Source: Candidatus Magasanikbacteria bacterium CG_4_10_14_0_2_um_filter_33_14
GTDB lineage: Bacteria; Patescibacteriota; Patescibacteriia; Magasanikbacterales; UBA922
Reading direction: 5' to 3'
Assembly: GCA_002793035.1 (NCBI GenBank)
Contig: PFPL01000043.1
Location: 317 to 53,751 of the forward strand
DNA: 53,435 bases
Under the pieces are notes generated by a model. That model was not told the DNA's origin. It saw nothing but the letters and a program-made list of their open reading frames with translations, and searched no databases. The translations under genes were made by a program, and so were the position numbers. Below are positions 1 through 15,733 of this stretch, piece after piece; positions within the stretch are counted from its first letter, which is position 1, and every line of letters starts with the position of its first letter.

Positions 1-647
1 AAACCAAATTACAAAAATATTTTTATTATTTTGTTTTATTTATTATTTTATTAGCTAATTTTGTATCTTTTTCACAAGGTGCTTGGGTGGCACTTGCGGC
101 TGCAATTATTGTCTATCTTTTTTTTGTTGGATATAAAAAGATTAGTATAAGTTTGGTAGTATTAGGAATGATAATTGTGTTGGCAATCCCTACTTTTCGT
201 TCTATCGTCTTGTTTCAGGATGGAGCTGGTAGTAATAGATTTGTTTTGGCTGAATATACTTGGGATTATTTGACCGAGTCTCCTCGTCAATTTGTGACTG
301 GTGCTGGTCTTCGTAATTTTTACGATGCTATTGAAAATCCTAGGCGTGATCCTCTTACTCTTGAACCTCTTACTTTTCCTCACAATATTTTTTTAAATTT
401 TTGGTCAGAAGTTGGACTTGTTGGGATGTTATCTTTTTTCTTCATTTTTGTTTTGCTTATCAAAAATATTTGGAAGATTACAAACAAAAAAAATAAAGCA
501 ATTTTACTTGCTCTACTAACTTCTTTTTTTGTACAGGGACTTGTGGATGTTCCTTATTTTAACAATGATTTAGCGTTACTTTTTTGGTCCATAGCCTTTA
601 TTGTCATAGATGAATATGACAAGACAAAAGATAAAAAGTTGAACTAA
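1..647 (+). CDS. O-antigen ligase/polymerase (Wzy/WaaL-like) membrane protein, 5' truncated by window edge
   Basis: Frame is open from position 3 through the listed ORF at 87; multi-TM with FSQGAWVALAAA and PHNIFLNFWSEVGLVG segments typical of the Wzy_C family. Confidence 0.7.
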   Translation, partial: TKLQKYFYYFVLFIILLANFVSFSQGAWVALAAAIIVYLFFVGYKKISISLVVLGMIIVLAIPTFRSIVLFQDGAGSNRFVLAEYTWDYLTESPRQFVTGAGLRNFYDAIENPRRDPLTLEPLTFPHNIFLNFWSEVGLVGMLSFFFIFVLLIKNIWKITNKKNKAILLALLTSFFVQGLVDVPYFNNDLALLFWSIAFIVIDEYDKTKDKKLN

Positions 648-2068
648 TTTTTTAGAGTCAACAGATCTTTCAATTGTTCTTTGCTAACTGTTCGGCTGAT
701 TATAAGTACCAGAATATAGACTAGGCCACTGAAAATAATTGTCATTAATAATGGCAATTTTTTTAATACCAAAATTATGAAGAGGCCCATGATAATATTG
801 GCCAAAATTATTTTCAAAAATAGTTTTAATTTTAATGGTTGATAAAAACTTTTTCTAATGCTAAAAAATACCAGCAAAGCTGTATAAAATTCTGAAAAGA
901 CGGTCATCCAAGCGGCACCATACATGCCATAGCGAGGAATAAAGATAAGATATCCTATGAGAGTAATGATAGCATTACTAATATATACCCACATTACTTT
1001 CTTTTGCATGTTTACGGCTACCGCTAGATGGCCAAAGATACCACCTAAAAATACTCCCAATACTGCAAGAGATAGGATCTTGAGAGCGTCTCCTGATAAA
1101 TAAAAACTTTCTCCTGCTACAAAGAGCATGATTTGATGTGACAACAAAAATAATCCTGTAAACATGGGGAGTGCAATAAGCATCATGGCATCGAAGGACA
1201 TTTGGTAACGTTCTTGGAATTCTTGTTTGTTACCAGCTACCCAAGAATTGGCTAGTAGAGGTAACATGACTCCCATAACCATCATTGCTGTCTGTATTAC
1301 TAGATCTATGACACGATAAGCGGCCCCATAAATACCTACAACAGATTGTTCTCTAAAATAACTAAGGACCAAGACATCGCCACGTAAATAGACGACATTG
1401 AAAATTATAGCAATAGCAATTGGCCACATTTTTTGGAGTATAGTAAGCCAAATTTTTCTATCGAAACTGAAAGTAATTTTTGTTTTTTTGCGTATATATA
1501 AGTATAGACTAAGAGTATATGATATACTTGCAACAACTATCACCCACATAAGTGTATAAAAACTGGCACGACCAGATATCGCCAAAAAAAGTCCGACTAC
1601 CAAAACTATTCTGCTTATTACCTCGCCGAATGCTTGGATTTGCATGGTAAGCCTTTCTTGTAAAAAACCAATAAAAACTTGATTGAGAGTAATGGCAAAA
1701 AAAGAAATAGAAGTAAATAAAATTGCTATTTTTACAGTATGAGGATATGGAAAAAGAAAAGCTGTAAGAGGAGCAATACTTAAAAAAATAAGTGCTGTAA
1801 AGAATCTAAAGGTAAGAATATTGCTAAAAAGTTTTGTCTTTTCAAATTTGTTTTCACCAAGCATTTGTGCCGTCACTGGTGTCATCCCAAAATCGATTAG
1901 TATCCCAAGAAAACCTAAAAAGGAAATAGTAGTAATATACCAACCAAATTTTTCATCACCTAGATATCGGGTGAGCATCGCCATAGCTGCCAATCCCAAG
2001 AAAGTAGAAAGTATTTTTCCTGTCATTTGAGTAATAGTATTGTGGGCGATTTTTTTACCAAGAGACAT
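644..2068 (-). CDS. Polysaccharide flippase (Wzx/RfbX-like, MATE/MVF superfamily); probable start at MSLGKK (ORF opens at 2152)
   Basis: ~12 TM segments, N-terminal LGKKIAHNTITQMTGKILSTFLGLAAMAMLTRYLG; next to a Wzy-like gene. Confidence 0.75.
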   Translation of the reverse strand: MSLGKKIAHNTITQMTGKILSTFLGLAAMAMLTRYLGDEKFGWYITTISFLGFLGILIDFGMTPVTAQMLGENKFEKTKLFSNILTFRFFTALIFLSIAPLTAFLFPYPHTVKIAILFTSISFFAITLNQVFIGFLQERLTMQIQAFGEVISRIVLVVGLFLAISGRASFYTLMWVIVVASISYTLSLYLYIRKKTKITFSFDRKIWLTILQKMWPIAIAIIFNVVYLRGDVLVLSYFREQSVVGIYGAAYRVIDLVIQTAMMVMGVMLPLLANSWVAGNKQEFQERYQMSFDAMMLIALPMFTGLFLLSHQIMLFVAGESFYLSGDALKILSLAVLGVFLGGIFGHLAVAVNMQKKVMWVYISNAIITLIGYLIFIPRYGMYGAAWMTVFSEFYTALLVFFSIRKSFYQPLKLKLFLKIILANIIMGLFIILVLKKLPLLMTIIFSGLVYILVLIISRTVSKEQLKDLLTLKN

Positions 2069-2303
2069 AACAAAAATGCTTAAAAGGCTTGAAAAGCCAG
2101 AAAGGCTATCAACTAATATTAGAAGTTTAACAAAATTAGCTAAAATTAGCAATCGTTTTGTTAGAAATTTTATTGTGAACTAATTGTTGATAAACATGAT
2201 AATTTTGCTAATTCTGGGGTAGTCTAAAATGTTGGTGAAAAGTAGTAAAATATGCTATAATTTTAGAAGACTATAAATTTATTTAATTTGTCTAAATTCA
2301 ACT

Positions 2304-4193
2304 ATGTTTTTTAAAAAAATCTTTTCATTTTTCATCATTTCTCTTGTTTTTATTACTTCTTTTGCTTTTAGTCCTTCTGTTGTTCAAGCTGCATTACCTG
2401 ACGTTTCTATAAGAGATGATTCTTTTGCTGCCAAATATGTTAGTCAGAGTATCTCTGACCCTGTAAAAATAGAAGCTGGTAGTACTATCACTGTGGACAT
2501 AAAATTCAAAAATGTAGGCACCAAGACTTGGAATGCTAGTTCTGGCAATTACATTTCAGCTTATACTATGGAACCTCGTTATCATAGTTCAGATTTTTCT
2601 GCTAGTAGTTGGGTGAGCAAAAGTCAAACTTCCAAAATTTCAGGTGCTGTAAAGCCTGGTGAAGTAGGAACTTTAAGTTTACAACTTACAGCTCCAGAAA
2701 AGACAGGTACTTATACTGAAAAATTTTGGTTGGCAGCTGAAAACTATTCTTGGTTGAAGGATGGTTATTTTTATCTAAAAATAAATGTAGTAGCAAAAAC
2801 TGCTTCCGTACAAGAAGAGACAAAAGTTACCGAAGAAATAAGTAAAACAGAGGATGTAACTACTTCCAACGAATACAAAGCTAAACAATTTATTTTGAAT
2901 ACCAAAAATGTGACAGCAAGAGGTGGAGAAAAGGTGAGTGTTATCTTGGGTGTACAAAATTTGGGTACAGCTACTTGGCAAAAATATTCTATAGTTGCCA
3001 ATAGCCCTGTTTCTTTGGCTGGTGAATCTTTGAACAATTTGACTTTTGCCGATGCAACTTGGAAGGATAATAATACTGTTTTAGAAAAAGACAAAAAAGT
3101 TGCTCAGTGGGACGTCATCCGTGATACTTTTAGCTTTGTTGCTCCTGCTAAAGCAGGAAGTTATACCTTGAATTTGAAACTAAAAGCAGATGATAGTCAG
3201 GTGAGTGGTTTAGACATAAATATTCCCGTTACTGTCACTTCCAATGCTCCAAATTATGTAGAAAATGTTACTAACAATAATAATATTATTAACGAAGTGC
3301 CTAGACTTTCAGAAGAACCTTTTATTAGAATAGGTGTCTGGCAAAATCCAGAAGACAAAGTAAAATTCTTATCAGATGAAGATGATTATGTAGTATATGC
3401 CGGAGATGTCATGCAAGGTATTTTGGGTAAAGGAGTACCTGCTACTACTTATTATCAAGATGGAATATATTATTTCAATTCTGTGGGATTAGATTTTTCT
3501 GGTAAAGATTTTGTTCGTCTTGTTCCTAGAAACAATTTACATGCAGTTTTTACTCTTGTAAATTACAATAGAGCTGTCACTTGGAAAGGTCCTGTAAACT
3601 TCAACAAATATCGTGGTACGATGGAACTTCGTAAGATAAACAATGGTGATGATGTGTATGTCATTGAAGAAACTTATATGGAAGATTATGTAGCTGGTAT
3701 TGCTGAGACTTCCAATGCAGGACCAACTGAATATATAAAAGCTTTGCTGACTGCGGCTCGTACTTATGCTTATTATGTCAAAGAATATACTACCAAACAT
3801 GATGCCAGAAATTTCGATGTAGTAGCTCATACTGGTGATCAGCTTTATCTTGGTTATGCAAGTGAAGTACTGATGCCAAATGTTGCAGCTGCTCAAAAAG
3901 CTACTCGTGGATATATGGTTACTTACAACAATGATATCGTCATTACACCATACTACAGTACTAGTGATGGTCGTACTAGAAATTGGACTGATGTCTGGGG
4001 AGGAAGTGCCAAACCTTGGTTGGTTTCTGTAACAGCTCCTTATGATTTGCGTGATGGCAAAGCGATGTACGGTCATGGTGTTGGTATGAGTGCTCGCGAT
4101 GCTGCTTATATGGCTGATGAAGAAGGAATTAGTTGGCAAGAAATATTACATCATTATTATACGGATGTGGAAATCAGTGTTATCTATAAATAA
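2304..4193 (+). CDS. Secreted SpoIID/LytB-domain protein with NBR1-like Ig domains
   Basis: Signal peptide; FKNVGTKTW and VQNLGTATW Ig-like repeats; C-terminal AARTYAYY...YYSTSDGRTRNWTDVWGG...GHGVGMSARDA SpoIID signature. Confidence 0.85.
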   Translation: MFFKKIFSFFIISLVFITSFAFSPSVVQAALPDVSIRDDSFAAKYVSQSISDPVKIEAGSTITVDIKFKNVGTKTWNASSGNYISAYTMEPRYHSSDFSASSWVSKSQTSKISGAVKPGEVGTLSLQLTAPEKTGTYTEKFWLAAENYSWLKDGYFYLKINVVAKTASVQEETKVTEEISKTEDVTTSNEYKAKQFILNTKNVTARGGEKVSVILGVQNLGTATWQKYSIVANSPVSLAGESLNNLTFADATWKDNNTVLEKDKKVAQWDVIRDTFSFVAPAKAGSYTLNLKLKADDSQVSGLDINIPVTVTSNAPNYVENVTNNNNIINEVPRLSEEPFIRIGVWQNPEDKVKFLSDEDDYVVYAGDVMQGILGKGVPATTYYQDGIYYFNSVGLDFSGKDFVRLVPRNNLHAVFTLVNYNRAVTWKGPVNFNKYRGTMELRKINNGDDVYVIEETYMEDYVAGIAETSNAGPTEYIKALLTAARTYAYYVKEYTTKHDARNFDVVAHTGDQLYLGYASEVLMPNVAAAQKATRGYMVTYNNDIVITPYYSTSDGRTRNWTDVWGGSAKPWLVSVTAPYDLRDGKAMYGHGVGMSARDAAYMADEEGISWQEILHHYYTDVEISVIYK

Positions 4194-4195
4194 TT

Positions 4196-4891
4196 ATGAC
4201 CGATACACATTTCAAAAAGAAATGTTTAGTTCCTACTGCTAGAGTCTGTTTCCGACTCAAATCTTTGCGTCAAGAGAAACAAGTTTCTTTGTCTGAATTG
4301 GAAATGAGAACTAAGATAAACAAATTATATTTACAAGCATTAGAAGAGTGTCGTTTTTCAGATATCCCACAGACAAGTCTCTACAAGAAAAATTTTGTCA
4401 AAAAATATGTCAAAGCTCTTGGTGAAGATCCTACTTGTTTTGTTGATCAATTTGTTAATGAAGAATTGACATATGTCCCACAAGAAAATAATACTCCAAA
4501 ATTAAAATATAGTAGATTTTATTTTAGCAACATGCCGAGTGTTTTGCGTTTTGTTTTGTTTAGTTTGGTAATAGGAAGTTTGTTATTATTTCTTGGGTCT
4601 CATGTTAATAATATTTTGACACCACCAGATTTGGTCGTGATTTCACCTGAAAATGGATATATTAGTAATAACAATTTTATTGATGTACATGGTAAGACTA
4701 ATCCTGAAACACAGATTACTATCAATGAAGAAGTAATAAAAAATGATGAAAATGGAAACTTTAGCCAAAGTATAAATCTTTTACCAGGTATCAATACTTT
4801 TGTTATCGAAGCTAAAAATAAACATGGCAAGACGACAGAAGAAGTGAGAAACGTGATTTATAAAAATAATGGTAGTATTTCTTTGAAGTAA
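4196..4891 (+). CDS. RodZ-like HTH protein with TM and extracytoplasmic Ig-like domain
   Basis: RLKSLRQEKQVSLSELEMRTKINKLYLQALE HTH_25-like; single TM; SPENGYISNNNFIDVHGKTNPETQITIN domain. Confidence 0.6.
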   Translation: MTDTHFKKKCLVPTARVCFRLKSLRQEKQVSLSELEMRTKINKLYLQALEECRFSDIPQTSLYKKNFVKKYVKALGEDPTCFVDQFVNEELTYVPQENNTPKLKYSRFYFSNMPSVLRFVLFSLVIGSLLLFLGSHVNNILTPPDLVVISPENGYISNNNFIDVHGKTNPETQITINEEVIKNDENGNFSQSINLLPGINTFVIEAKNKHGKTTEEVRNVIYKNNGSISLK

Positions 4892-4932
4892 CATTGATTA
4901 CACTGATTTTAAAATAGATTACATAGATTAAA

Positions 4933-4960
4933 AAAACGACTTGAAGTCGTTTTTATTTTT
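4933..4960 (+). terminator. Intrinsic terminator
   Basis: AAACGACttgaaGTCGTTTTTATTTTTTT. Confidence 0.65.
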
Positions 4961-4970
4961 TTAATTATTT

Positions 4971-5312
4971 TTATTTTCTATTATAATCATCTTCCAATCT
5001 GACAATATCATTTTCATCAAATTCTCCAAAAGATATTTCCATAATTTCCATACTATTTTCATTTGTCATGATACGATGTTTTGTCTCTTTGGGTATGAAA
5101 TGTTCATCACCTTTTTGTACATCAATAATTTCTTCTCCAATAATGATTTGTCCACTTCCTCCGATCACTCGCCAAAATTCGTCACGTTTGTGATGATACT
5201 GTAGACTAAGTTTAGAATTTGGTTTGACGGTAATTATTTTTACAGTTACTTGTTCATTGTGACAAAATTGTTCAAATTTGCCCCAAGGTCTTTCTTCGGA
5301 GTATTTGTTCAT
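4971..5312 (-). CDS. Mannose-6-phosphate isomerase type II / cupin
   Basis: MNKYSEERPWGKFEQFCHNEQVTVKIITVKPNSKLSLQYHHKRDEFWRVIGGSGQ; start placed at internal Met (ORF opens at 5444) just after the HD gene stop. Confidence 0.8.
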   Translation of the reverse strand: MNKYSEERPWGKFEQFCHNEQVTVKIITVKPNSKLSLQYHHKRDEFWRVIGGSGQIIIGEEIIDVQKGDEHFIPKETKHRIMTNENSMEIMEISFGEFDENDIVRLEDDYNRK

Positions 5313-5313
5313 A

Positions 5314-5925
5314 TTATCTATTTTTATTGGTATAAATATTTTCCCACCACTCAGATATTTTACCAGCCAATATTTCTTCTGCCAACTTTTTGGCGGATTC
5401 AGTCTTGAGACTTTTGTATTGGATATTTTCTGTTTGTCCTTCACCTTTACCGTGGAGCCAGATGGCTGCTTCTTGATTGCCTTGGTGTGTGTATTCTTTT
5501 AGCAATAGTATCTGGTCTATCATATCAGCATCTTTGGCGACGATTGCTTCTTTGCTTTCACGCTTTTCGAATTCTGTACTCATATCAAATAAGTCTGGGA
5601 AAGGTAAATCACCTAGTTGGTCTTTTATTATTTCCTCTTCGAAGATCTTTACGTATTTTTTGTGAATGTAGTTGTGATCACCACTACGGATTTCACCCAG
5701 GTCATGAGTGAGAGCCATGAGAGTAGTCTTGTATGGATCAGCATTTTCTAGTTTGGCCAGAAACCATGCTACAAGTCCGACGCGGTAAGAGTGAGTAGCG
5801 ATGTTGTCAGATAAATCTTGGGTAAGTAAGACTTGCTGGTGCATGCGAGGAAGTTTGCGCATGGTGCCGACTTCAAATAAGAAATTGGCGATTTTTTTGT
5901 AGGAGTTTGGTGTTGTTTCTGGCAT
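5314..5925 (-). CDS. HD-domain hydrolase (YfbR/HDDC2-like)
   Basis: HSYRVGLVAWFLAK...LTHDLGEIRSGD metal-binding motif. Confidence 0.8.
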   Translation of the reverse strand: MPETTPNSYKKIANFLFEVGTMRKLPRMHQQVLLTQDLSDNIATHSYRVGLVAWFLAKLENADPYKTTLMALTHDLGEIRSGDHNYIHKKYVKIFEEEIIKDQLGDLPFPDLFDMSTEFEKRESKEAIVAKDADMIDQILLLKEYTHQGNQEAAIWLHGKGEGQTENIQYKSLKTESAKKLAEEILAGKISEWWENIYTNKNR

Positions 5926-5929
5926 ATAT

Positions 5930-6430
5930 TTATTTGTTATCTTTTTTATTCATTAAGTAATTTTTTATTTTATACCAAAATCTTCTAAAAGTAGGAAATT
6001 GTGATAAATATTGTTTATAACTTCTTCCTGCTTTATCAAACACTTGAATATATAATACTTTTAAAAAATCTATATCTTTTTGTTCTGCCATTACTGTAGC
6101 TTCTGGATTTTCTTCATTAAGAATATTTTTAGGATCATCCAAAAGACTATTAGATAATAGGAGAGATTCTCCAGATTCACAAAATAAACCTACCACACCT
6201 AAACGAATAGGTCGACGCCCTTTATTTGTTATTGTTACAACTAGATAATCTTTATCTTCTGAATATGGAGGTATGGCATTTATAATTTTCATGCCTTTTT
6301 GATGACTAACAATGACCTTAGCTCTATCTCTCCATACATTATATGAAACTAGTATCATACTAATAGTGGCTACAATAGCCCCATACCAAGCCACAGAATC
6401 AGCAGAAATATTTAGGGTTAAATTTGGCAT
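5930..6430 (-). CDS. Hypothetical protein with one N-terminal TM
   Basis: ORF of 166 aa. Confidence 0.55.
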   Translation of the reverse strand: MPNLTLNISADSVAWYGAIVATISMILVSYNVWRDRAKVIVSHQKGMKIINAIPPYSEDKDYLVVTITNKGRRPIRLGVVGLFCESGESLLLSNSLLDDPKNILNEENPEATVMAEQKDIDFLKVLYIQVFDKAGRSYKQYLSQFPTFRRFWYKIKNYLMNKKDNK

Positions 6431-6593
6431 ATACCTTTTTTAATTTACTATTTTGTTTAAATTTGATAGTTGTTTCAGTATACCATTCTTATCCCAAAAA
6501 ACAAGTTTGACACCATATCTATAACAGTGTAAAATTAAGCACGGAGGAGAGGGTTTTACCTCTTTTTTAATCTAAAAATTGACCTGTCTTTTT

Positions 6594-6623
6594 CGCGAAA
6601 AAAGGGTTTTAACCCTTCTCGCG
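6594..6623 (+). promoter_or_regulatory. Hairpin in recA upstream/leader region
   Basis: CGCGaaaaAAGGGttttaaCCCTTctCGCG inverted repeat ~30 bp before recA. Confidence 0.4.
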
Positions 6624-6655
6624 ACACGTATAAATTAAGTAATTTAAGTAATATT

Positions 6656-7711
6656 ATGGCAACAAAGAAAGAAAATCCAAAAATGGAAGCTGCTAAGACA
6701 GCAATCGATCAGATTAGACAAAAATATGGTGACAACTCCATCATGCGCTTCGGTGAAGCCAAGACTATGGAAGTGGATGCCGTGTCGACAGGCTCAGTAT
6801 CAATGGACATCGCTCTTGGTGTCGGTGGTGTACCTCGTGGACGTATTATCGAAGTATTTGGACCAGAAGCTTCTGGTAAAACTACTCTTGCTCAACATAT
6901 CGTGGCTGAGGTGCAAAAGCTTGGTGGTATCGCAGCTTTCGTCGATGCGGAACATGCTCTTGATCCAGAGTACGCCAAGAAAATTGGTGTGGACGTCGAT
7001 GCTTTATATATTTCTCAACCTGATACTGGTGAACAAGCTTTAGAAATTCTAGAAACTCTTGTTCGTTCCAATGCTGTGGATGTCGTCGTTATCGACTCTG
7101 TTGCAGCTCTTGTTCCAAAAGCTGAAATCGAAGGTGAAATGGGAGATAGTCATATGGGCTTGCAAGCTAGACTTATGTCTCAAGCTTTGCGTAAACTGAC
7201 AGGTATAGTATCTAAGACTCGTACTGTGGTAATTTTCATCAACCAAACTCGTCAAAAGATTGGTGTGTTCTTCGGTAATCCTGAGACTACTACTGGTGGT
7301 AATGCTCTCAAATTTTATTCTTCAGTTCGTATCGAAGTCCGTCGTAGTGCTCAAATCAAACAAGGTGACAAGATTATTGGTAACAGAGTAAAAGTAAAAA
7401 TCGTGAAGAACAAAGTCGCCGCACCTTTTCGTACTACAGAATTTGATATCATGTACAATGAAGGTATCTCTGTAGCTGGTGATATGCTTGATACTGGTGT
7501 GACTTACAACGTTATTCACAAATCTGGTAACAGTTATAGCTTCGGTGAAGAGAAGTTGGGAGTAGGTAGAGAAAAAGCCAAGCAATTCTTGCGTGAAAAT
7601 CCAAAGATGATGGCAGAAATCAAGACTAGAGTTTGGGAAGCTGTAAAACTAGGGGATGCACCAGAAGAAGAAAAAGGTAAAGCTGGCGAGAAAGAAGATG
7701 TAGAAGAATAG
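6656..7711 (+). CDS. recA: Recombinase RecA
   Basis: [13 protein letters not shown] Walker [61 protein letters not shown]. Confidence 0.98.
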
Positions 7712-7747
7712 AGTTTCATAAAAACACTAGAACATAAAAACATTAAA

Positions 7748-7773
7748 ACAGTCTCGAAAGAGTCTGTTTTTTT
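7748..7773 (+). terminator. Intrinsic terminator after recA
   Basis: ACAGTCTCGAAAGAGTCTGTTTTTTT. Confidence 0.6.
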
Positions 7774-7853
7774 GTATTTTACAAACTTTTGACTTTATAA
7801 ACTTTTAGACTTTATAGACTTATGAAAACATGATATAATGTATTTACAAAAAT

Positions 7854-10361
7854 ATGGCAAAAGGTAAAAAGAAAAAATCATCGCGTTTAGATCCTACACT
7901 TTCTCGTGGGATTATTGCGGTATTGCTAATTATATTAGCTATAATAATAACATTGAGCTTATTTGAAAAAGCTGGTTTTGTTGGTGTCATGATCAATATT
8001 ATTTTAAGTTTTCTTTTTGGAAGTATTACTAAATTTTCTGTACCTATAATAATTTTGATAATATCCTGGTTTCTTATAAACGACGGAAAGTATGATTACA
8101 AACCAACCCATATTATAGGTTCTTTGCTTTTTTTAATTTCATTTTCAAGTATTAGTCATCTAAAATTTGATACTAGTGAAATGTTTTATCAAGCTTTAAA
8201 TGGTCATGGTGGAGGTGTTTTTGGTATGATGGCTTGGCCTATGAAAGAATACTTAAAAAGTATTGCTAGTTATGTAATATTTTTTGGTGTAGGTCTGATT
8301 TCTGTTTTTCTTATTTTCAATACTACTCTTACAGCTTTTGTTCTTATCCATCAAAAAATATTCGAAGGTTTGGGTTGGCTAGGTAGAAGTATTCTTTTTG
8401 TTATCAAAAAACTTTTTGTACCAAGTGGCCACAAATCTGAAGTCAAAATTAGAGGTGAGTACGAGACTGAAGATGATGAATATGAGGATGATGACGAAGA
8501 TTATGAAGACGAGGATGAAGAGGAAGAAACCCAAAAACATGGCCGTCGTTTTCTTAGTAAACGTATCCAAAAACAGGAAGAAGATATTGAAGAGGATGAT
8601 GACGAAGATGAAGATGATACAAAAGAAATTCCAAAATTCAAAGAAAAAGAAGAAAAGAAAAATGATGTCTGGTCCAAGAGGGTTATTATCAAAAATTTAC
8701 CACCATTATCACTTCTTACTACCAAAAAAGGTAAGCCAACTAGTGGTGATATAAAATCTAATGCAGAGATAATTCACAGTACTCTCAATGAATTCAATGT
8801 GGGTGTGACAATGGGAGAAGTTCGTGTTGGCCCAACCGTGACACAATATTCTCTAAAACCTGATAAAGGTGTAAAATTGAGTAAAATTACTAGTTTGTCC
8901 AATGATTTGGCTTTGACTTTGGCTGCTCATCCTATTCGTATTGAAGCACCAATACCAGGTCAATCTTTAGTTGGTATCGAAGTCCCAAATGAAAAATCAG
9001 CTATTGTTTCTTTTCGTGAATTGTTGGAAGCAAAAGAATTTGAAAAAAGACCACACAATATGATGGTAGCTCTTGGTAAAGATGTTGGTGGCAAAACTTG
9101 GTTTGCAGATTTACCAAAAATGCCTCATCTTTTGATTGCTGGTGCTACTGGTAGTGGTAAGACTGTTTGTATGAATACCATTATAATGAGTCTACTCTAC
9201 CAAAATACTGCGGAAACTCTTCGTATGATTATGGTCGACCCAAAAAGAGTAGAACTCACTTTATACAATGGTATCCCTCATTTGCTTACTCCTGTTATTA
9301 CCAATACCCAACAAACAGTCAATGCTCTCAAGTGGTGTATTGGTGAGATGGATAGACGTTTTGAAGTCTTGTCCAAAGTTGGTAGTAGAGATATCACTTC
9401 CTACAATGAAGCTTTCAAAGCTAACAAAATGCCACAGATTGTTTTCATTATCGATGAGTTGGCCGATCTTATGGCGACAGCTGCCGGTGAAGTAGAGGCA
9501 GGTATTATTCGTCTTGCTCAGATGGCTCGTGCGGTGGGTATTCATTTAATTGTAGCTACCCAAAGACCTAGTGTTGATGTTATTACTGGTCTTATGAAAG
9601 CAAATATTCCTGGACGTATCGCTTTTTCAGTGGCTTCTCTTGTAGATTCACGTACTATTTTGGATTCTTCTGGTGCGGAAAAACTTATTGGTCGTGGTGA
9701 TATGCTTTTTCAAACTGCTGAATTTGGTAAACCAATTCGTATTCAAGGTGCCTATATTTCTGAGAGTGAACTAAAAAATGTTGTAAAATATTTAAAAGGT
9801 GATGAAGAACCAGAATATGATATTTCTATTATAGAAAGTAAAAAAGGTGGAAGTAATGGTACTATGAATATGTTTGGTGGGACAGCTGACGATCAAGACC
9901 CTCTATTTGAAGAATGTAAAGAAATAATTATAAAATATGAAAAAGCCAGTGCGTCATTTCTCCAACGTCGTTTGAAGATTGGTTATGCGAGAGCCGCTAG
10001 AATCCTAGACGAGCTAGAAGAGGCTGGTATTGTAGGACCTTCTCAAGGTGCCAAAGCTCGTGAAATACTTGTTACAGCCGAAACTGTGGGGCGTACAAGA
10101 GTTGCAGGAGGTGAACACAATGTCTTTACTGATCCAGAAGATGAAGATGTTGAAGAAAAGGACGAAGTCGAAGAAGAAGAAAATACTGAGGAAGATTATG
10201 AAGAGGATGAAACAGAAGAAGAAACTGAAGATCAATATGCCGATGTTGATATAGATGAGGAAGAAGAGGATGAAACTGATGACGAGGAAGAGGACGATAG
10301 TACCGAAGAAGAAATAGATGATGATCATACTCATAATGGTAGGTCAAGGTTTGAGTACTAA
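7854..10361 (+). CDS. ftsK: DNA translocase FtsK/SpoIIIE
   Basis: 4 N-terminal TMs, acidic linker, AGATGSGKTVCMNTI Walker A, FIIDELADLM, TQRPSVDVITGLMKANIPGRIAF, C-terminal winged helix FLQRRLKIGYARAARILDELEEAGIVGPSQGAK. Confidence 0.97.
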   Translation: MAKGKKKKSSRLDPTLSRGIIAVLLIILAIIITLSLFEKAGFVGVMINIILSFLFGSITKFSVPIIILIISWFLINDGKYDYKPTHIIGSLLFLISFSSISHLKFDTSEMFYQALNGHGGGVFGMMAWPMKEYLKSIASYVIFFGVGLISVFLIFNTTLTAFVLIHQKIFEGLGWLGRSILFVIKKLFVPSGHKSEVKIRGEYETEDDEYEDDDEDYEDEDEEEETQKHGRRFLSKRIQKQEEDIEEDDDEDEDDTKEIPKFKEKEEKKNDVWSKRVIIKNLPPLSLLTTKKGKPTSGDIKSNAEIIHSTLNEFNVGVTMGEVRVGPTVTQYSLKPDKGVKLSKITSLSNDLALTLAAHPIRIEAPIPGQSLVGIEVPNEKSAIVSFRELLEAKEFEKRPHNMMVALGKDVGGKTWFADLPKMPHLLIAGATGSGKTVCMNTIIMSLLYQNTAETLRMIMVDPKRVELTLYNGIPHLLTPVITNTQQTVNALKWCIGEMDRRFEVLSKVGSRDITSYNEAFKANKMPQIVFIIDELADLMATAAGEVEAGIIRLAQMARAVGIHLIVATQRPSVDVITGLMKANIPGRIAFSVASLVDSRTILDSSGAEKLIGRGDMLFQTAEFGKPIRIQGAYISESELKNVVKYLKGDEEPEYDISIIESKKGGSNGTMNMFGGTADDQDPLFEECKEIIIKYEKASASFLQRRLKIGYARAARILDELEEAGIVGPSQGAKAREILVTAETVGRTRVAGGEHNVFTDPEDEDVEEKDEVEEEENTEEDYEEDETEEETEDQYADVDIDEEEEDETDDEEEDDSTEEEIDDDHTHNGRSRFEY

Positions 10362-10462
10362 GAGTAATTTTAGATAAAGTTACTCTTATTTTTTCAATTT
10401 TATTTTGTTTAAAAATGTTTATAAAGTTATACTTTAAGATATTTTTTTATTAATTTTTGTTT

Positions 10463-10639
10463 ATGAATAAAATAGAAATAAAAAATGAAATTTTGGAAGT
10501 AATGAGAAGTTATGGGAAATTTCAAAAAACAAAAGAAAAACTTATAAAAAGAATAAATAATTTGTGTATAAATATAGAAAATGAAAAAGTAAGAATGAAA
10601 ATTGAAAAAATAAGAAAAGATTTAATGGAGAATATATGA
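10463..10639 (+). CDS. Small hypothetical protein, translationally coupled (ATGA) to next gene
   Basis: ORF ending ATATGA overlapping the ATG at 10636. Confidence 0.5.
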   Translation: MNKIEIKNEILEVMRSYGKFQKTKEKLIKRINNLCINIENEKVRMKIEKIRKDLMENI

Positions 10640-12684
10640 AAAATAAAGAATCTTTAAAAAAATTGGAGGTTGTTGATAGTAAGCAAGAAAGACAAGAAAC
10701 AAGTTTATTGTTAAAGGCATTAGATTCTTTTGGAGTTTCTTCGAAAAGGTGGGAGAGAGAATTGGATTTTTTAGAAAGCGACGATACAGATACTGATCTT
10801 GATGGGGATCTTGATCTAGAGGGTCTTATAGATGATGTGGGAAAACGAGTAGAAGAAAAAAAGAAAGACGAAATAAAAAAGCTCAAAAAAACGATTTTGC
10901 CTATAGAAGTAGACGGAAATTTATCAAATATTTCAGAGTTGAGTAAAGAAAGGGCAGATATTATTGAAGATATACAAAAGGTAGAAGAAGGTTTTGACAT
11001 CGAAAATCCAGAGTTTTCAATTGAAGTTCAACAATCTATTGAAGTGTTAAATCATCTTTGTAGTGAAAATATTCATGATAGACAAAAATTATATGATGCT
11101 ATTTATCATAGTAATCAAGATTTGGTCCCTCTGTTAAAGTATATGGAAAAGAATCCTAAAGAATTAATAACTAAAGTTTTACCAAAAATAAAAAATTTAG
11201 AATCAAGATTAATATTAATTAATGAATATAGTGTGATACTAACACTCGCTGGGGTTGATGTTATAGCTTTGAACGAAGATGTAATGACGCAAGCTAAATA
11301 TAGTAATGATGATATAAAAGACAATCTTCTTTATGAGAAAAGAGAAAAGGATTTATTAAATAGTAAAAATGAAAAGAAAAAAAATGCTTTTATTGTTGAA
11401 GATTGTTTGGACAGAATCATGGGGAAGATTGACACAAACATTGAATGGGCTCTGTCAATATACTCAGCATCACTTGATGAAAGCGTAATAGGTGATGGAA
11501 AGATTAGACTAGAAATCAAAAAAGGTTTTGAAAATAAAATACGTGAGATTATAAATGGCTTAAAAGATGTTCAGCCGTTTGAAGTTTTGAAATTATATAG
11601 TTTATTACAAAAAAATGAAATAAATACAGATAGCATTATCGGTGTTCGAGATTTGGGTTATGTAACTGAGGATGCTTTTAGTAAAACAACAGTTAATTCA
11701 GAAAATTATCAAGAAATTTTTCTTAAGTTCAATGAATATTCCGTATTTTTAGAAAAATATCGTTCTAGAATGATATTGGAAAATATTTTAATTGAATTGT
11801 CAGGTGATAATTTGTTATTAGCATTGAGTTTACATGATAGAGAATACAAAAAGACGTTAGGAAGGGACTTCTTTAGAGAAATTATACAGAAAAGATTTAA
11901 CGATGAATTGGCAAAATCACCGCTTGACGCTTTGAAATTTTGTGAAGAATTGCCAGACAGCACGGATTCATTGGAATATCATTACTCAATGATATTAGGA
12001 TTAAAAGATAAAAAATCAATTTTATCATTATTAAAAAGTAATAAACTTAAAGATAGAATAGAGAAAAATATTATACGTCGTTATGATTTAGAACATAGTA
12101 TTTTAAGTTTATTTGTAGAAGGTCTAGAAAGTGGAGTTAAAAGTGTGGTGGACTTTTATCGTGAATTACCAGATGATTTTAATAAGGTTGTAATTTCCCA
12201 AAAGATAGTTTCTCATTTTTGGCTTAGTTTGGATAGCAATCTACCTGAAAAAGAAAAAGGAATAAAAACAAAAGAATATTTTGCAGACAAATTAGATATT
12301 TTGGCAGAAATGATGTGGTCTAAAGATTCTGATAATAATATGGTGTGGCAAATCAGCAATGCTTTTACGAATGGTGGAGGTGTGGTTCAGTTAGATATGA
12401 TAAAAGATATAGTTAAAAGAGACAATAGGCTTACAACACTTGCAAAGTTGAATTTAGGTTCATTGAAAATGATGTATGATCGTATTGTGGCAGAGGATTT
12501 ATTGTCAGATGATGAGTTCAAAAAAATATACAATGCCTGTTTGAAACACAGACCTCAGGATATTCTTTTTTTTAGAGAAATATTTAAAGATAAAGTTGAT
12601 ATATCTGATGATGATTATGCAGCGTCTTTGGCTGAATTATACAAAAATCAAGATGAAAAAATTTTTTTTGGAAATTCTCATTGA
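10636..12684 (+). CDS. Large helical hypothetical protein, N-terminal portion (possibly one gene with 12686..15733)
   Basis: Long ORF; reading frame breaks at AAAAAATTTTTTTT. Confidence 0.7.
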   Translation: MKNKESLKKLEVVDSKQERQETSLLLKALDSFGVSSKRWERELDFLESDDTDTDLDGDLDLEGLIDDVGKRVEEKKKDEIKKLKKTILPIEVDGNLSNISELSKERADIIEDIQKVEEGFDIENPEFSIEVQQSIEVLNHLCSENIHDRQKLYDAIYHSNQDLVPLLKYMEKNPKELITKVLPKIKNLESRLILINEYSVILTLAGVDVIALNEDVMTQAKYSNDDIKDNLLYEKREKDLLNSKNEKKKNAFIVEDCLDRIMGKIDTNIEWALSIYSASLDESVIGDGKIRLEIKKGFENKIREIINGLKDVQPFEVLKLYSLLQKNEINTDSIIGVRDLGYVTEDAFSKTTVNSENYQEIFLKFNEYSVFLEKYRSRMILENILIELSGDNLLLALSLHDREYKKTLGRDFFREIIQKRFNDELAKSPLDALKFCEELPDSTDSLEYHYSMILGLKDKKSILSLLKSNKLKDRIEKNIIRRYDLEHSILSLFVEGLESGVKSVVDFYRELPDDFNKVVISQKIVSHFWLSLDSNLPEKEKGIKTKEYFADKLDILAEMMWSKDSDNNMVWQISNAFTNGGGVVQLDMIKDIVKRDNRLTTLAKLNLGSLKMMYDRIVAEDLLSDDEFKKIYNACLKHRPQDILFFREIFKDKVDISDDDYAASLAELYKNQDEKIFFGNSH

Positions 12685-12685
12685 A

Positions 12686-15600
12686 ATGTATGATAATGGT
12701 ATAATAAATGAAAATAATGAGGAAGAATTTTTTGTCGAAATTTTAAAAAATAATAGTGCTGATGACGTAGAGAGACTAAAATTTTTTGCAAAAGAAGTCT
12801 CTGTTTTTAGTAGTCAATATAAACATATTTTTAATATGTTTAATAGAGATTTGAGTATAATGTATCAGCAAGATCCTGCTAGTCTAAAAGAAGTATTTTC
12901 TTTTTTCAAAAAAATTAGTAATTCATTAAATCAATTGCAGACGAATGACGTAAAAACTTTGTTAATGGATGTCAAGGGAAATATGGGTATGTTTGACTTG
13001 GTTGGTAATATATTAGCTAATTTGGATTTTAAAATAGATACTTCTGCTCTGTTAGATACTGTTTCTAAAAATCCAGATTCAGGAGAAAAACTTTTGGACT
13101 TCTTTTCAAATCATAGAGAAGATTTTGATAAAAATTATAACAAAGAGATCTCTAATCTTATAATCAAAAATGGTGATAAAATTGCCCTAATGGATGCAGA
13201 AAAACAGAATGAGTTTGTAGATTCTTTGAATGAAGTCCAGCGTATATACAACAACTCAAAGCATGTACATCTTGCACCAGCCCTTATGTCTAAGTTATTT
13301 GAAAACGTAGGAGATATAGAAAATCTAGTATCTGTGGCTAACGAACTTTCTAATAGTAAGTTACCTTTCATTGGCAAAGGTATTTCCAAATTTGTTTTTG
13401 AGGGAGAAAGAAATATTACGGAAATAGTTGAAGCTGTTAATGAAGTTGTTGATATTATTGAGGATAACAATTTGTCAATTGTTACTGCTCATGAAATATA
13501 CAAAACTGTAGAAAATATGTTAGTTCTTAATAGGAAAGAGAAGGAACAATATATAGAAATTTTGGGTTTGATAGATTCCAGTCCTTCTCAAGAAATTAAA
13601 CATATTTCTTTTGAGTTAGTTGCTGAAGTAATAAAAGCAGACAACCCTCTCAAGGCTTATCGCACTATTGAAAGTATTTTTGTAAAGAATAATCTACCTT
13701 TAGTGGGAAAGCTTTATCGAGTGTTTGAAACATTGTATCCTCAAAAGAGACTAGATGATAACTTGAAGTTGGAAGTTACTAGTCCCTATTTGCGTAGTAT
13801 AGAAGGTCCGAAGAGATTTCGTACTATATTTAGAGATTTATTAAAGGTTCATATTGATTCTGATAATAGATCTTTGCGTTTATTTTTGGAATCACTTCAA
13901 GAAGGTGAAACTATGTTAGCTCAAGTAGAGGGAGATGGAAAACATGAGCCAACAAAAAGAGAACTAAAGAAATTAGAACATTTTATAACAAAATTAAATA
14001 CATTATTTTTGAGTTCGCAGCTACATTCTATAGAATCTGGAGTGGAATTAAATAGTGATTTGACTATTGATCAAATAAAAGATTCTTACAAAAATTTGAA
14101 ATCTAGTTTGGATCAAATAAGCGTATCTCTTGGGATGGAGAGTGGAAACACTGTCAGTGAAAACATGATAACTCTGTTTTGTGGACAACTCGGTTACAAA
14201 AGTATTGAAGATGTATTAACAAGAATGAAGACATCAAAAGCTATAGCTCATCAAAGATCTATGGATATGGTGAGCGCTGCACCAGATGGTTATTTGAAAA
14301 TTAACAGAGGAGATTTATTGAAGGGTACTGATGGTTCTAGTATGGGGGTTATTCTAGAATCAGGTCCAATTGCTAGAGAGTGTATTGGAGCTGGTGCTAC
14401 GTCTGATTTCACACCCCATGATATAGATTTTCAATTGATGGACTCTAGTATTGAAGGAATTCAGGATTTTGAGACTATCGTAAGAACATCTATTTCCACT
14501 GGATATGGTGATGTACTTATGGTAGTAAAAGATAGAGGTCAATATAATATAACCAGAAATACTGATAGTGAAATGGTGAATGATTATGATCGCGGTAAGT
14601 ATGAATTATATTTATCACCAATACTTGGCAAAGAGCATTATGGAATTAGAACTGGTCTGTCTGCTACAGAAATAGATTTTCTTATTTTGGAGCAAGAGTT
14701 TGATCAAAGAAACCATGAAACATTGTTTTTGGACATTGTTGAGAATGGATATTATATCCCAGTCACAGATCAAACAGGTAAAATAATTTTTACACCAGAG
14801 ATGTATGAGGAGTATCGTCGTTTTTATAGAGGTGTCGAATTGTATAGTGGTGATGATATGGAAATCGTAGAGATGTCACAAGATATGGCGCATAGTGCAG
14901 AAATAGAAAAATTATCAGAAGAAATGAAAAATGAAAGAGGTGATATTTTGGAGATGTTTGAAGGGATAAGAGGGATAATTTCTGAAGTGCTAGTAGAAAG
15001 TGAAATACCATTAAAAGATGACTTGGACATGAGTATTGTTGGAGCTGAATTATCTAGCTCTGGGTCTACAGGCAGAGGTACAAACAAACTAGGTGATTTT
15101 GATTTTGATTTAATACTCAGACTAGATAGTTCAGATGCTTCGAAAGTTAAAGAAGTGATTGGTTTGCTTTGTAATAGATTTGGTGTCAACAAAAGTAGTG
15201 ATGAAGTTGTAACTTTGGCAGGAACAGACACTACAGACTTGGGTCAATTGCGTATACTCAAGGCTAATATTGGTGGAAAAGAAATTGGAATAGATATTGC
15301 TTTTGTGGGAAAGTCTGGAGATGTCTTGTATGCATCCCATGACGCTGTAAGAGATAGATTGTCTTGGATAAAAGAAAATGTGGGAGAAAAAGCTCATGAT
15401 GACGTAAAAGCTAATATTGTACTTACTAAAAAAGTGTTGACTGAAGGTGGTGCATATAAGAAAGTTGAGCATGGTTCTATCGGTGGTATTGGTGTAGAAA
15501 ATTGGATATTGTCAAATGGTGGAAATATGTTGGAAGCTTTTAGGACTTTTAAAGAAGCGGCTTATGATGAAAATAATAATAGACTACCACTTAGCGAATT

Positions 15601-15733
15601 TCAAAAAAAGTACAGAATCCTTGATCCTGGTACAAATGTTAAATATAATAACCATAGTGATTTTGCTCAAACTCTCAAAGAAGGTGGCTATGAAAGAATT
15701 TTAGATGTGATTGATAAGTATATTCCAACCTAA
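12686..15733 (+). CDS. Large helical protein with C-terminal Pol-beta/CCA-OAS-like nucleotidyltransferase motif
   Basis: GSTGRGTNKLGDFDFDLIL (GS..GT...DxD) and a third acidic segment IGIDIAFV; ATG at 12686 follows the upstream TGA (listed ORF opens at 12596). Confidence 0.65.
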   Translation: MYDNGIINENNEEEFFVEILKNNSADDVERLKFFAKEVSVFSSQYKHIFNMFNRDLSIMYQQDPASLKEVFSFFKKISNSLNQLQTNDVKTLLMDVKGNMGMFDLVGNILANLDFKIDTSALLDTVSKNPDSGEKLLDFFSNHREDFDKNYNKEISNLIIKNGDKIALMDAEKQNEFVDSLNEVQRIYNNSKHVHLAPALMSKLFENVGDIENLVSVANELSNSKLPFIGKGISKFVFEGERNITEIVEAVNEVVDIIEDNNLSIVTAHEIYKTVENMLVLNRKEKEQYIEILGLIDSSPSQEIKHISFELVAEVIKADNPLKAYRTIESIFVKNNLPLVGKLYRVFETLYPQKRLDDNLKLEVTSPYLRSIEGPKRFRTIFRDLLKVHIDSDNRSLRLFLESLQEGETMLAQVEGDGKHEPTKRELKKLEHFITKLNTLFLSSQLHSIESGVELNSDLTIDQIKDSYKNLKSSLDQISVSLGMESGNTVSENMITLFCGQLGYKSIEDVLTRMKTSKAIAHQRSMDMVSAAPDGYLKINRGDLLKGTDGSSMGVILESGPIARECIGAGATSDFTPHDIDFQLMDSSIEGIQDFETIVRTSISTGYGDVLMVVKDRGQYNITRNTDSEMVNDYDRGKYELYLSPILGKEHYGIRTGLSATEIDFLILEQEFDQRNHETLFLDIVENGYYIPVTDQTGKIIFTPEMYEEYRRFYRGVELYSGDDMEIVEMSQDMAHSAEIEKLSEEMKNERGDILEMFEGIRGIISEVLVESEIPLKDDLDMSIVGAELSSSGSTGRGTNKLGDFDFDLILRLDSSDASKVKEVIGLLCNRFGVNKSSDEVVTLAGTDTTDLGQLRILKANIGGKEIGIDIAFVGKSGDVLYASHDAVRDRLSWIKENVGEKAHDDVKANIVLTKKVLTEGGAYKKVEHGSIGGIGVENWILSNGGNMLEAFRTFKEAAYDENNNRLPLSEFQKKYRILDPGTNVKYNNHSDFAQTLKEGGYERILDVIDKYIPT

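What the first reader, a model, noticed from the sequence alone, without database searches (positions are those of the whole stretch)
10636..15733. Probable ~1,690-aa helical protein with a C-terminal Pol-beta-fold nucleotidyltransferase, split by a homopolymer
The C-terminus has GSTGRGTNKLGDFDFDL plus IGIDIAFV, matching the GS-GT-DxD...D pattern of the archaeal CCA-adding/OAS/cGAS class. It is preceded by a conserved-looking domain (GYGDVLMVVKDRGQYNIT...GIRTGLSATEIDFLI...YYIPVTDQTGKIIFTPEMYEEYRRFY) that I cannot assign. It follows very long helical repeats. Fused or coupled, this would be an unusual architecture; function unknown.
Basis: partly seen in the sequence, partly recalled or inferred. 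Interest (0 to 1): 0.7.

Follow-up and report, generated by a model that had tools for sequence, protein, structure and literature searches.

The report
Giant ART-plus-nucleotidyltransferase protein of Patescibacteria
The window encodes, broken by a one-base frame change, a very large bacterial protein that ends in two enzyme-like domains (one resembling ADP-ribose-transferring enzymes, one resembling the enzymes that add nucleotides to RNA ends or make immune signals), and about 40 intact relatives in other tiny-genome bacteria show that this unstudied combination is real.

Summary
Two ORFs (10636-12684; then frame +1 to 15733) form one ~1,699-codon gene; coding signal switches frame at an A6T8 run (12656-12669). 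About 40 relatives have one unbroken ORF of up to 2,612 aa, so the split is a sequencing error or recent mutation. The C-terminus is a Pol-beta nucleotidyltransferase (NTase): GS-DxD-D is invariant in every relative covering it, and the AlphaFold model (pLDDT 84) matches poly(A) polymerase, archaeal CCA-adding enzyme and CdnC. New here: the preceding 'unassignable' domain has the ADP-ribosyltransferase (ART) fold; all 50 listed PDB matches are ARTs, and a sister branch keeps H[GA]...[ST]EI. The same chassis carries other C-termini in relatives: DUF294-like NTase, HD-like, or kinase-like plus HD. It is patchy (8 of 380 genomes of the phylum), single-copy, without conserved neighbours, and absent from the phages and plasmids searched. 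Best reading: an accessory intracellular conflict/stress enzyme in which a fast-diverging helical sensor controls an ART-like plus NTase tip acting on RNA ends or nucleotides. Architecture is well supported; function is inferred.

The parts
10636..12684 (+). ORF1: N-terminal part of the giant protein (682 aa, charged, helical-looking, no TM-like segment)
   Evidence: frame-1 coding signal to 12655; max 19-residue hydropathy 1.78; no Pfam/NCBIfam hit
12656..12669 (+). A6T8 homopolymer tract in which the reading frame changes by one base
   Evidence: sequence; coding-frame switch; relatives are single ORFs
12596..15733 (+). ORF2 (frame 2): remainder of the protein; coding signal in this frame from about 12660
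13541..14275 (+). Conserved all-helical module before the ART-like domain (SPSQEI..., [ED]xIF[IV]KNNLP...GK.Y..FE.L.P, NRSLR)
   Evidence: alignments A2/A3; AF2 secondary structure H2-H246
14276..14866 (+). D1: ART-fold domain (KG..., SDxTPxDxD, YG, HYGIRTG, TEID, YIPV...G.I.FTPEMY)
   Evidence: AF2 model pLDDT 83, pTM 0.82; Foldseek PDB, all 50 listed matches ART superfamily; 7/7 H-type sisters keep H + E
14321..14323 (+). D1 Lys261 (A3 numbering) at the place of the NAD-binding His of ARTs; invariant 28/28 in K-type D1, His in H-type sisters
14669..14671 (+). D1 Glu377 of the [ST]EI motif, candidate catalytic Glu; 23/28 in K-type, 7/7 in H-type
14960..15730 (+). C-terminal Pol-beta nucleotidyltransferase with helical core domain (class I CCA / PAP / CD-NTase type)
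15062..15109 (+). NTase catalytic motif GSTGRGTN...DFD
   Evidence: GS 28/28, D521 and D523 27/27
15293..15295 (+). Third catalytic Asp (D585, in IDIAF)
   Evidence: 27/27
15473..15511 (+). GSIGGIGVENWIL motif of the helical core domain
   Evidence: GGxGGxGVENWIL, key positions conserved in 25-27 of 27

Best explanation
It is one member, frame-broken in this assembly, of an undescribed family of giant (mostly 1,300-2,600 aa) intracellular proteins found mainly in Patescibacteria. SHOWN: a helical, fast-diverging N-terminus, a conserved helical module, an ART-fold domain (by structure prediction), and a class I CCA/PAP/CD-NTase-like nucleotidyltransferase with intact catalytic residues; in relatives the last domain is replaced by other enzyme domains. 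INFERRED: the protein is an accessory stress or conflict enzyme. The long helical part binds a trigger (a phage, plasmid or cell-state signal) and relieves inhibition of the C-terminal tip. The ART-like domain binds NAD+ or a nucleotide/RNA end, and the NTase then adds NMP units to an RNA 3' end, most likely tRNA, or to the bound nucleotide, stopping translation or making a signal.
For: NTase: AF2 and Foldseek matches to yeast PAP (8.0e-5), archaeal CCA enzyme (1.5e-4), CdnC (2.9e-4); catalytic GS/DxD/D invariant. ART: all 50 listed PDB matches are ARTs, Tpt1 and DarT first; viral matches include PARP-like and Tpt1 proteins; H-type sisters align to KptA over the HGT strand-helix with hhalign probability 51, against 0.1-0.2 in three controls (reversed profile, NTase, helical module). 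Chassis with swapped C-termini: five C-terminal states, at least 4 changes on the D1 tree; L008 and L011 share N-terminal helical sequence (E 1.6e-39) but carry different NTases. Accessory: 7/86 genomes of the order, 16/381 of the class, 8/380 of the phylum, one copy each, absent from the four sampled sister species of the genus. Not housekeeping CCA addition: the genome has a normal class II CCA enzyme. N-terminus diverges beyond detection.
Against: No direct evidence for any substrate, for sensing or for toxicity. No conserved neighbour such as an antitoxin, immunity gene or CBASS effector. Not found in the phages, plasmids or viral contigs searched, where conflict genes are often shared. 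The ART assignment of the K-type domain rests on predicted structure and on its H-type sisters: the K-type profile alone does not match KptA (probability 0.4), each single Foldseek PDB E-value is 3e-3 or weaker, and Lys replaces the NAD-binding His, so it may not use NAD+. The NTase could equally be a signal synthase.
Confidence: 0.45

Rival explanations
1. It is a CD-NTase (cGAS/DncV-like) second-messenger synthase with a built-in giant sensor and an ART-like domain that makes or modifies the nucleotide substrate.
For: PADLOC oligonucleotide-cyclase profiles hit 8/28 relatives (best 4.7e-5); Pfam SMODS hits 2/27; Foldseek matches CdnC, CdnD and CdnE; long helical sensors coupled to NTases fit an immune logic.
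Against: No effector gene next to any of the loci compared; archaeal CCA is the commonest NCBIfam hit (11/27) and PAP/CCA rank above CdnC in Foldseek; the window protein itself hits no cyclase profile.
Confidence: 0.2
2. It is an RNA-repair enzyme: a Tpt1-like domain cleans a 2'-phosphate end and a CCA-like NTase restores the 3' end of damaged tRNA; the HD-like variants remove phosphates instead.
For: Tpt1 is the best structural match of D1 and archaeal CCA the commonest profile match of the NTase; HD-type C-termini in relatives.
Against: Patchy presence (8/380); the genome already has a class II CCA enzyme; no repair gene conserved nearby; PF01885 does not recognise it.
Confidence: 0.15
3. 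It is an effector delivered by an epibiotic Patescibacterium into its host cell, with exchangeable C-terminal enzyme domains as in polymorphic toxins.
For: C-terminal domain exchange on a common chassis; ART and NTase domains are common toxin activities; several carriers belong to host-dependent groups (general knowledge).
Against: No signal peptide-like start or TM segment, no immunity gene neighbour, N-terminus not a known export domain.
Confidence: 0.12
4. In this organism the gene is a decaying or already dead copy (real frameshift), so the window product has no function although the family does.
For: Single frame break at a homopolymer; sister genomes of the genus lack the gene; long end branch of the window row on the D1 tree (0.99 against a median of 0.53); some otherwise conserved D1 positions drift in the window (GS to GP at 275-276).
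Against: Both halves keep full coding signal and no other stop interrupts 1,699 codons; all NTase catalytic residues intact; A6T8 tracts are typical places for assembly error or for transcript slippage.
Confidence: 0.25

Closest known systems
Archaeal (class I) CCA-adding enzyme, TIGR03671 / PDB 1r89, 1uet
   Same: GST-R-T...D-D catalytic motif, Pol-beta plus helical core fold; Foldseek 1.5e-4; profile hits in 11/27 relatives
   Different: Weak profile scores and none in the window; fused to an ART-like domain and a giant helical chassis; a normal class II CCA enzyme exists in the same genome
CD-NTases of CBASS (CdnC, CdnD, CdnE)
   Same: Same NTase class; Foldseek 2.9e-4; PADLOC cyclase hits in 8/28
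   Different: Not a small stand-alone enzyme, no conserved effector, HORMA or TRIP13 neighbours
Tpt1/KptA RNA 2'-phosphotransferase
   Same: Best PDB fold match of D1 (3.3e-3); HGT strand-helix shared with H-type sisters
   Different: Tpt1 Pfam model does not detect D1; the H is K in the window branch; D1 keeps a C-terminal TEI glutamate; no N-terminal Tpt1 lobe
DarT DNA ADP-ribosyltransferase toxins
   Same: Second and third fold matches of D1 (7.6e-3, 8.7e-3)
   Different: DarT Pfam model does not detect D1; no DarG macrodomain antitoxin in fusion or as conserved neighbour
DUF294/GlnD-type nucleotidyltransferases
   Same: Occupy the same C-terminal place in sister giants L011, L012, L013, L071 (DUF294 2.8e-6 to 2.9e-4)
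   Different: A different NTase family (GSxGRxExxxGSDxDY) from that of the window

Membership tests
Pol-beta nucleotidyltransferase superfamily | GS...DxD...D catalytic triad on the Pol-beta fold | tested here: met
   Residues invariant; AF2 pLDDT 84 and Foldseek matches
Archaeal class I CCA-adding enzymes | Recognition by the family profile (TIGR03671) | tested here: not met
   Window: no hit at E<=0.1; relatives only E 8.6e-4 at best, 11/27
Archaeal class I CCA-adding enzymes | Adds CCA to tRNA | not testable with these tools
   Needs a biochemical assay
CD-NTase / CBASS | Operon with a nucleotide-activated effector | tested here: not met
   No shared neighbour across the loci compared
CD-NTase / CBASS | Cyclase profile match | tested here: inconclusive
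   8/28 relatives at up to 4.7e-5, window none
ADP-ribosyltransferase superfamily | ART fold | tested here: met
   All 50 listed PDB matches to the predicted D1 model are ARTs, best E 3.3e-3
ADP-ribosyltransferase superfamily | His (or Arg) on the first strand and Glu on the last strand of the NAD site | tested here: inconclusive
   H-type sisters have both (7/7); the window branch has Lys (28/28) plus Glu (23/28)
ADP-ribosyltransferase superfamily | NAD+ binding and ADP-ribose transfer | not testable with these tools
   Needs an assay
Tpt1/KptA | Match to PF01885 | tested here: not met
   0/116 genomes including G000 and G016, which hold D1
DarT | Match to PF14487 | tested here: not met
   0/116 genomes including G000 and G016

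The most novel reading that the evidence does not exclude
A new class of single-protein prokaryotic conflict machine: a giant recognition scaffold whose ART-like domain (with Lys in place of the NAD-binding His) prepares or binds an ADP-ribosyl or nucleotide acceptor that the adjacent CCA/cGAS-class NTase then extends, giving a chemistry (nucleotidylation of an ADP-ribosylated acceptor, or an NAD-derived second messenger) not yet described, with an interchangeable last enzyme (NTase, HD, kinase).
Probability: 0.15. Interest if true: 0.88.

Novelty: new variant of a known kind. Interest (0 to 1): 0.6.

Why it matters
Patescibacteria have about 1 Mb genomes, yet some spend 4-8 kb on a single gene of this family, so it must pay for itself. 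An ART-fold domain fused to a CCA/OAS/cGAS-class nucleotidyltransferase was not found described in the papers searched, and the exchange of the last enzyme domain on a shared chassis points to a modular conflict or signalling system that can be assayed directly with the C-terminal ~480 residues.

Tried and rejected
(1) D1 as a second Pol-beta NTase (its NGS...DxD...EID pattern looks like one): rejected, because the fold search of D1 alone listed only ARTs and hhalign of D1 against the NTase profile gave probability 0.8 or less. (2) Programmed frameshift at A6T8: not favoured, because no relative has a split gene of this kind. (3) Housekeeping CCA enzyme: rejected, a class II enzyme is present. 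(4) Phage, plasmid or viral origin: no match. (5) Operon-type CBASS or toxin-antitoxin: no shared neighbours. (6) Sequence searches with the window protein or profiles against PDB, Pfam, NCBIfam and PHROGs gave nothing usable for the window itself. (7) First genome-contig scan with the window sequence alone found nothing; with alignment A2 it found 30 loci. (8) NCBIfam on neighbours of the 'Bacilli' loci did not settle their taxonomy.

Full report
CHECK OF THE OBSERVATION. Codon-usage scoring trained on thirteen other large ORFs of the window shows frame 1 as the only coding frame up to the A6T8 run at 12656-12669 and frame 2 as the only one after it (sequence). Nothing else interrupts 1,699 codons. 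All quoted peptides are in frame 2. The window lies in a 1.1 Mb draft genome (97% complete). The two relatives of the same family, G016 and G036, have contigs of the same lengths (35,177 and 39,093 bases) and the same protein lengths as public records named Ca. Magasanikbacteria, so the organism is most likely a Magasanikbacteria-type Patescibacterium (inference).

INTACT RELATIVES. Searching 95 relatives with the last 478 residues gave three full homologues at 41-48% identity and three that match only the first half. Each sits in one uninterrupted ORF: 2,429 aa in L008, 1,420 in L009, 1,723 in L010, 2,612 in L011, at least 1,395 in L012 and 1,830 in L013. A profile scan of public genome contigs brought 30 loci from Magasanik-, Uhr-, Vogel-, Taylor-, Zambryski-, Jackson- and Saccharibacteria and from MAGs labelled Bacilli or Clostridia, mostly ORFs of 1,300-2,400 aa; the shorter ones include cases cut by a contig end. 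Several of these records are the same genomes seen in the first search, so about 40 distinct relatives remain. The split in the window is therefore not a family trait.

C-TERMINAL NTASE. In a 28-sequence alignment GS is present in 28/28 and both Asp of DxD and the third Asp in 27/27 that cover them. The AlphaFold model of 730 residues has pLDDT 84 and pTM 0.85. Foldseek ranks yeast poly(A) polymerase (8.0e-5), archaeal CCA-adding enzyme (1.5e-4), TUT7, CdnC (2.9e-4), Cid1 and NF90. Profile hits in individual relatives agree: NTP_transf_2 in 12/27 (best 4.4e-4), SMODS in 2/27, archaeal CCA TIGR03671 in 11/27 (best 8.6e-4), PADLOC oligonucleotide cyclase in 8/28 (best 4.7e-5). The domain is thus a class I CCA / PAP / CD-NTase-type enzyme with an intact active site; which product it makes cannot be told from sequence.

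THE UNASSIGNED DOMAIN IS ART-LIKE. Modelled alone (pLDDT 83, pTM 0.82), residues 14276-14866 match only ADP-ribosyltransferase-fold proteins among the 50 listed PDB hits: Tpt1 (3.3e-3), DarT1 (7.6e-3), DarTG, KptA, PARPs, tankyrases and bacterial ART toxins. Each E-value is modest, but the unanimity is not expected by chance. Matches to viral proteins include PARP-like and Tpt1 proteins. A sister branch of the domain (L011, L012, L013, L071, L073, L083, L086) has H[GA] instead of KG on the first strand and keeps [ST]EI (7/7). Its profile aligns to the HGT strand-helix of nine KptA sequences with probability 51, against 0.1-0.2 for a reversed profile and two unrelated profiles. The two branches are plainly homologous (hhalign probability 100). 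In the window's branch the His is an invariant Lys and the Glu is kept in 23/28, so an altered ligand or chemistry is likely. The domain is not recognised by the Tpt1 or DarT Pfam models.

ONE CHASSIS, SEVERAL LAST DOMAINS. After the ART-like domain different relatives carry: a CCA/OAS-like NTase (38 of 46 rows), a DUF294-like NTase (L011, L012, L013, L071; Pfam E 2.8e-6 to 2.9e-4), an HD-like motif domain (L055, L056; motif by eye, no Pfam hit), a kinase-like region plus HD (L073; HD 7e-4, HipA_2 0.04, sub-threshold), or nothing (L083). On a tree of the domain these five states need four changes, the minimum. L008 and L011 share N-terminal helical sequence (E 1.6e-39) although their last domains differ.

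DISTRIBUTION AND CONTEXT. Present in 7/86 genomes of the order, 16/381 of the class and 8/380 of the phylum sampled, always one copy, and missing from the four other sampled species of the window's genus. Neighbours are not shared between loci beyond scattered unrelated genes. No match in 50,697 phage records (C-terminal 730 aa), 72,556 plasmid records (D1) or IMG/VR (D1 profile). The genome has its own class II CCA enzyme. No TM-like segments.

MECHANISM. Shown: the domain order, an intact NTase active site, an ART-like predicted fold, domain exchange, patchy single-copy presence, and an N-terminus that diverges beyond detection. Inferred: the fast-evolving helical part recognises something variable; the conserved tip is an enzyme pair working on RNA ends or nucleotides; the whole is an accessory conflict or stress protein. 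Rivals (CD-NTase signalling, tRNA repair, delivered effector, dead copy) are kept open with the tests that separate them. The dead-copy rival is not exclusive of the others: it concerns this gene copy, not the family.

COMPARISON WITH WHAT IS KNOWN. Searches of the paper library for ART plus nucleotidyltransferase in Patescibacteria/CPR, and passages of two surveys of ART and conflict systems (PMC9503650, PMC7159879), did not show this architecture. That is not an exhaustive literature search. Both enzyme folds are known; their fusion on a giant exchangeable chassis appears new, hence 'new variant of a known kind'.

Noticed in passing
L013:14260-19845 (-): The gene next to the DUF294-type giant of G011 is another giant (1,861 aa) with an ABC1/UbiB-type kinase domain near its C-terminus (Pfam 7e-18): possibly a second giant chassis.
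   Followed up: no
window:15797-17770 (-): Convergent 657-aa ORF with a long acidic/proline-rich low-complexity region and a C-terminal poly-proline run; no Pfam or NCBIfam hit.
   Followed up: no
L043-L045, L047, L050-L054, L057: Ten MAG contigs labelled Bacilli or Clostridia (several from isolates named Lapin) carry full or near-full homologues forming one cluster with the Saccharibacteria ones; horizontal transfer or mis-binning, unresolved.
   Followed up: partly
L083:4867-6996 (+): A 710-aa protein ending in the ART-like domain with an intact HGT...STEI signature and no enzyme after it: a good minimal construct for testing ART activity.
   Followed up: no
L055, L056: ART-like domain followed by a ~200-aa HD-type domain (EHT...LHDxGKP) that Pfam does not recognise.
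   Followed up: partly
window:6656-10361 (+): recA and ftsK lie directly upstream of the giant gene on the same strand.
   Followed up: no
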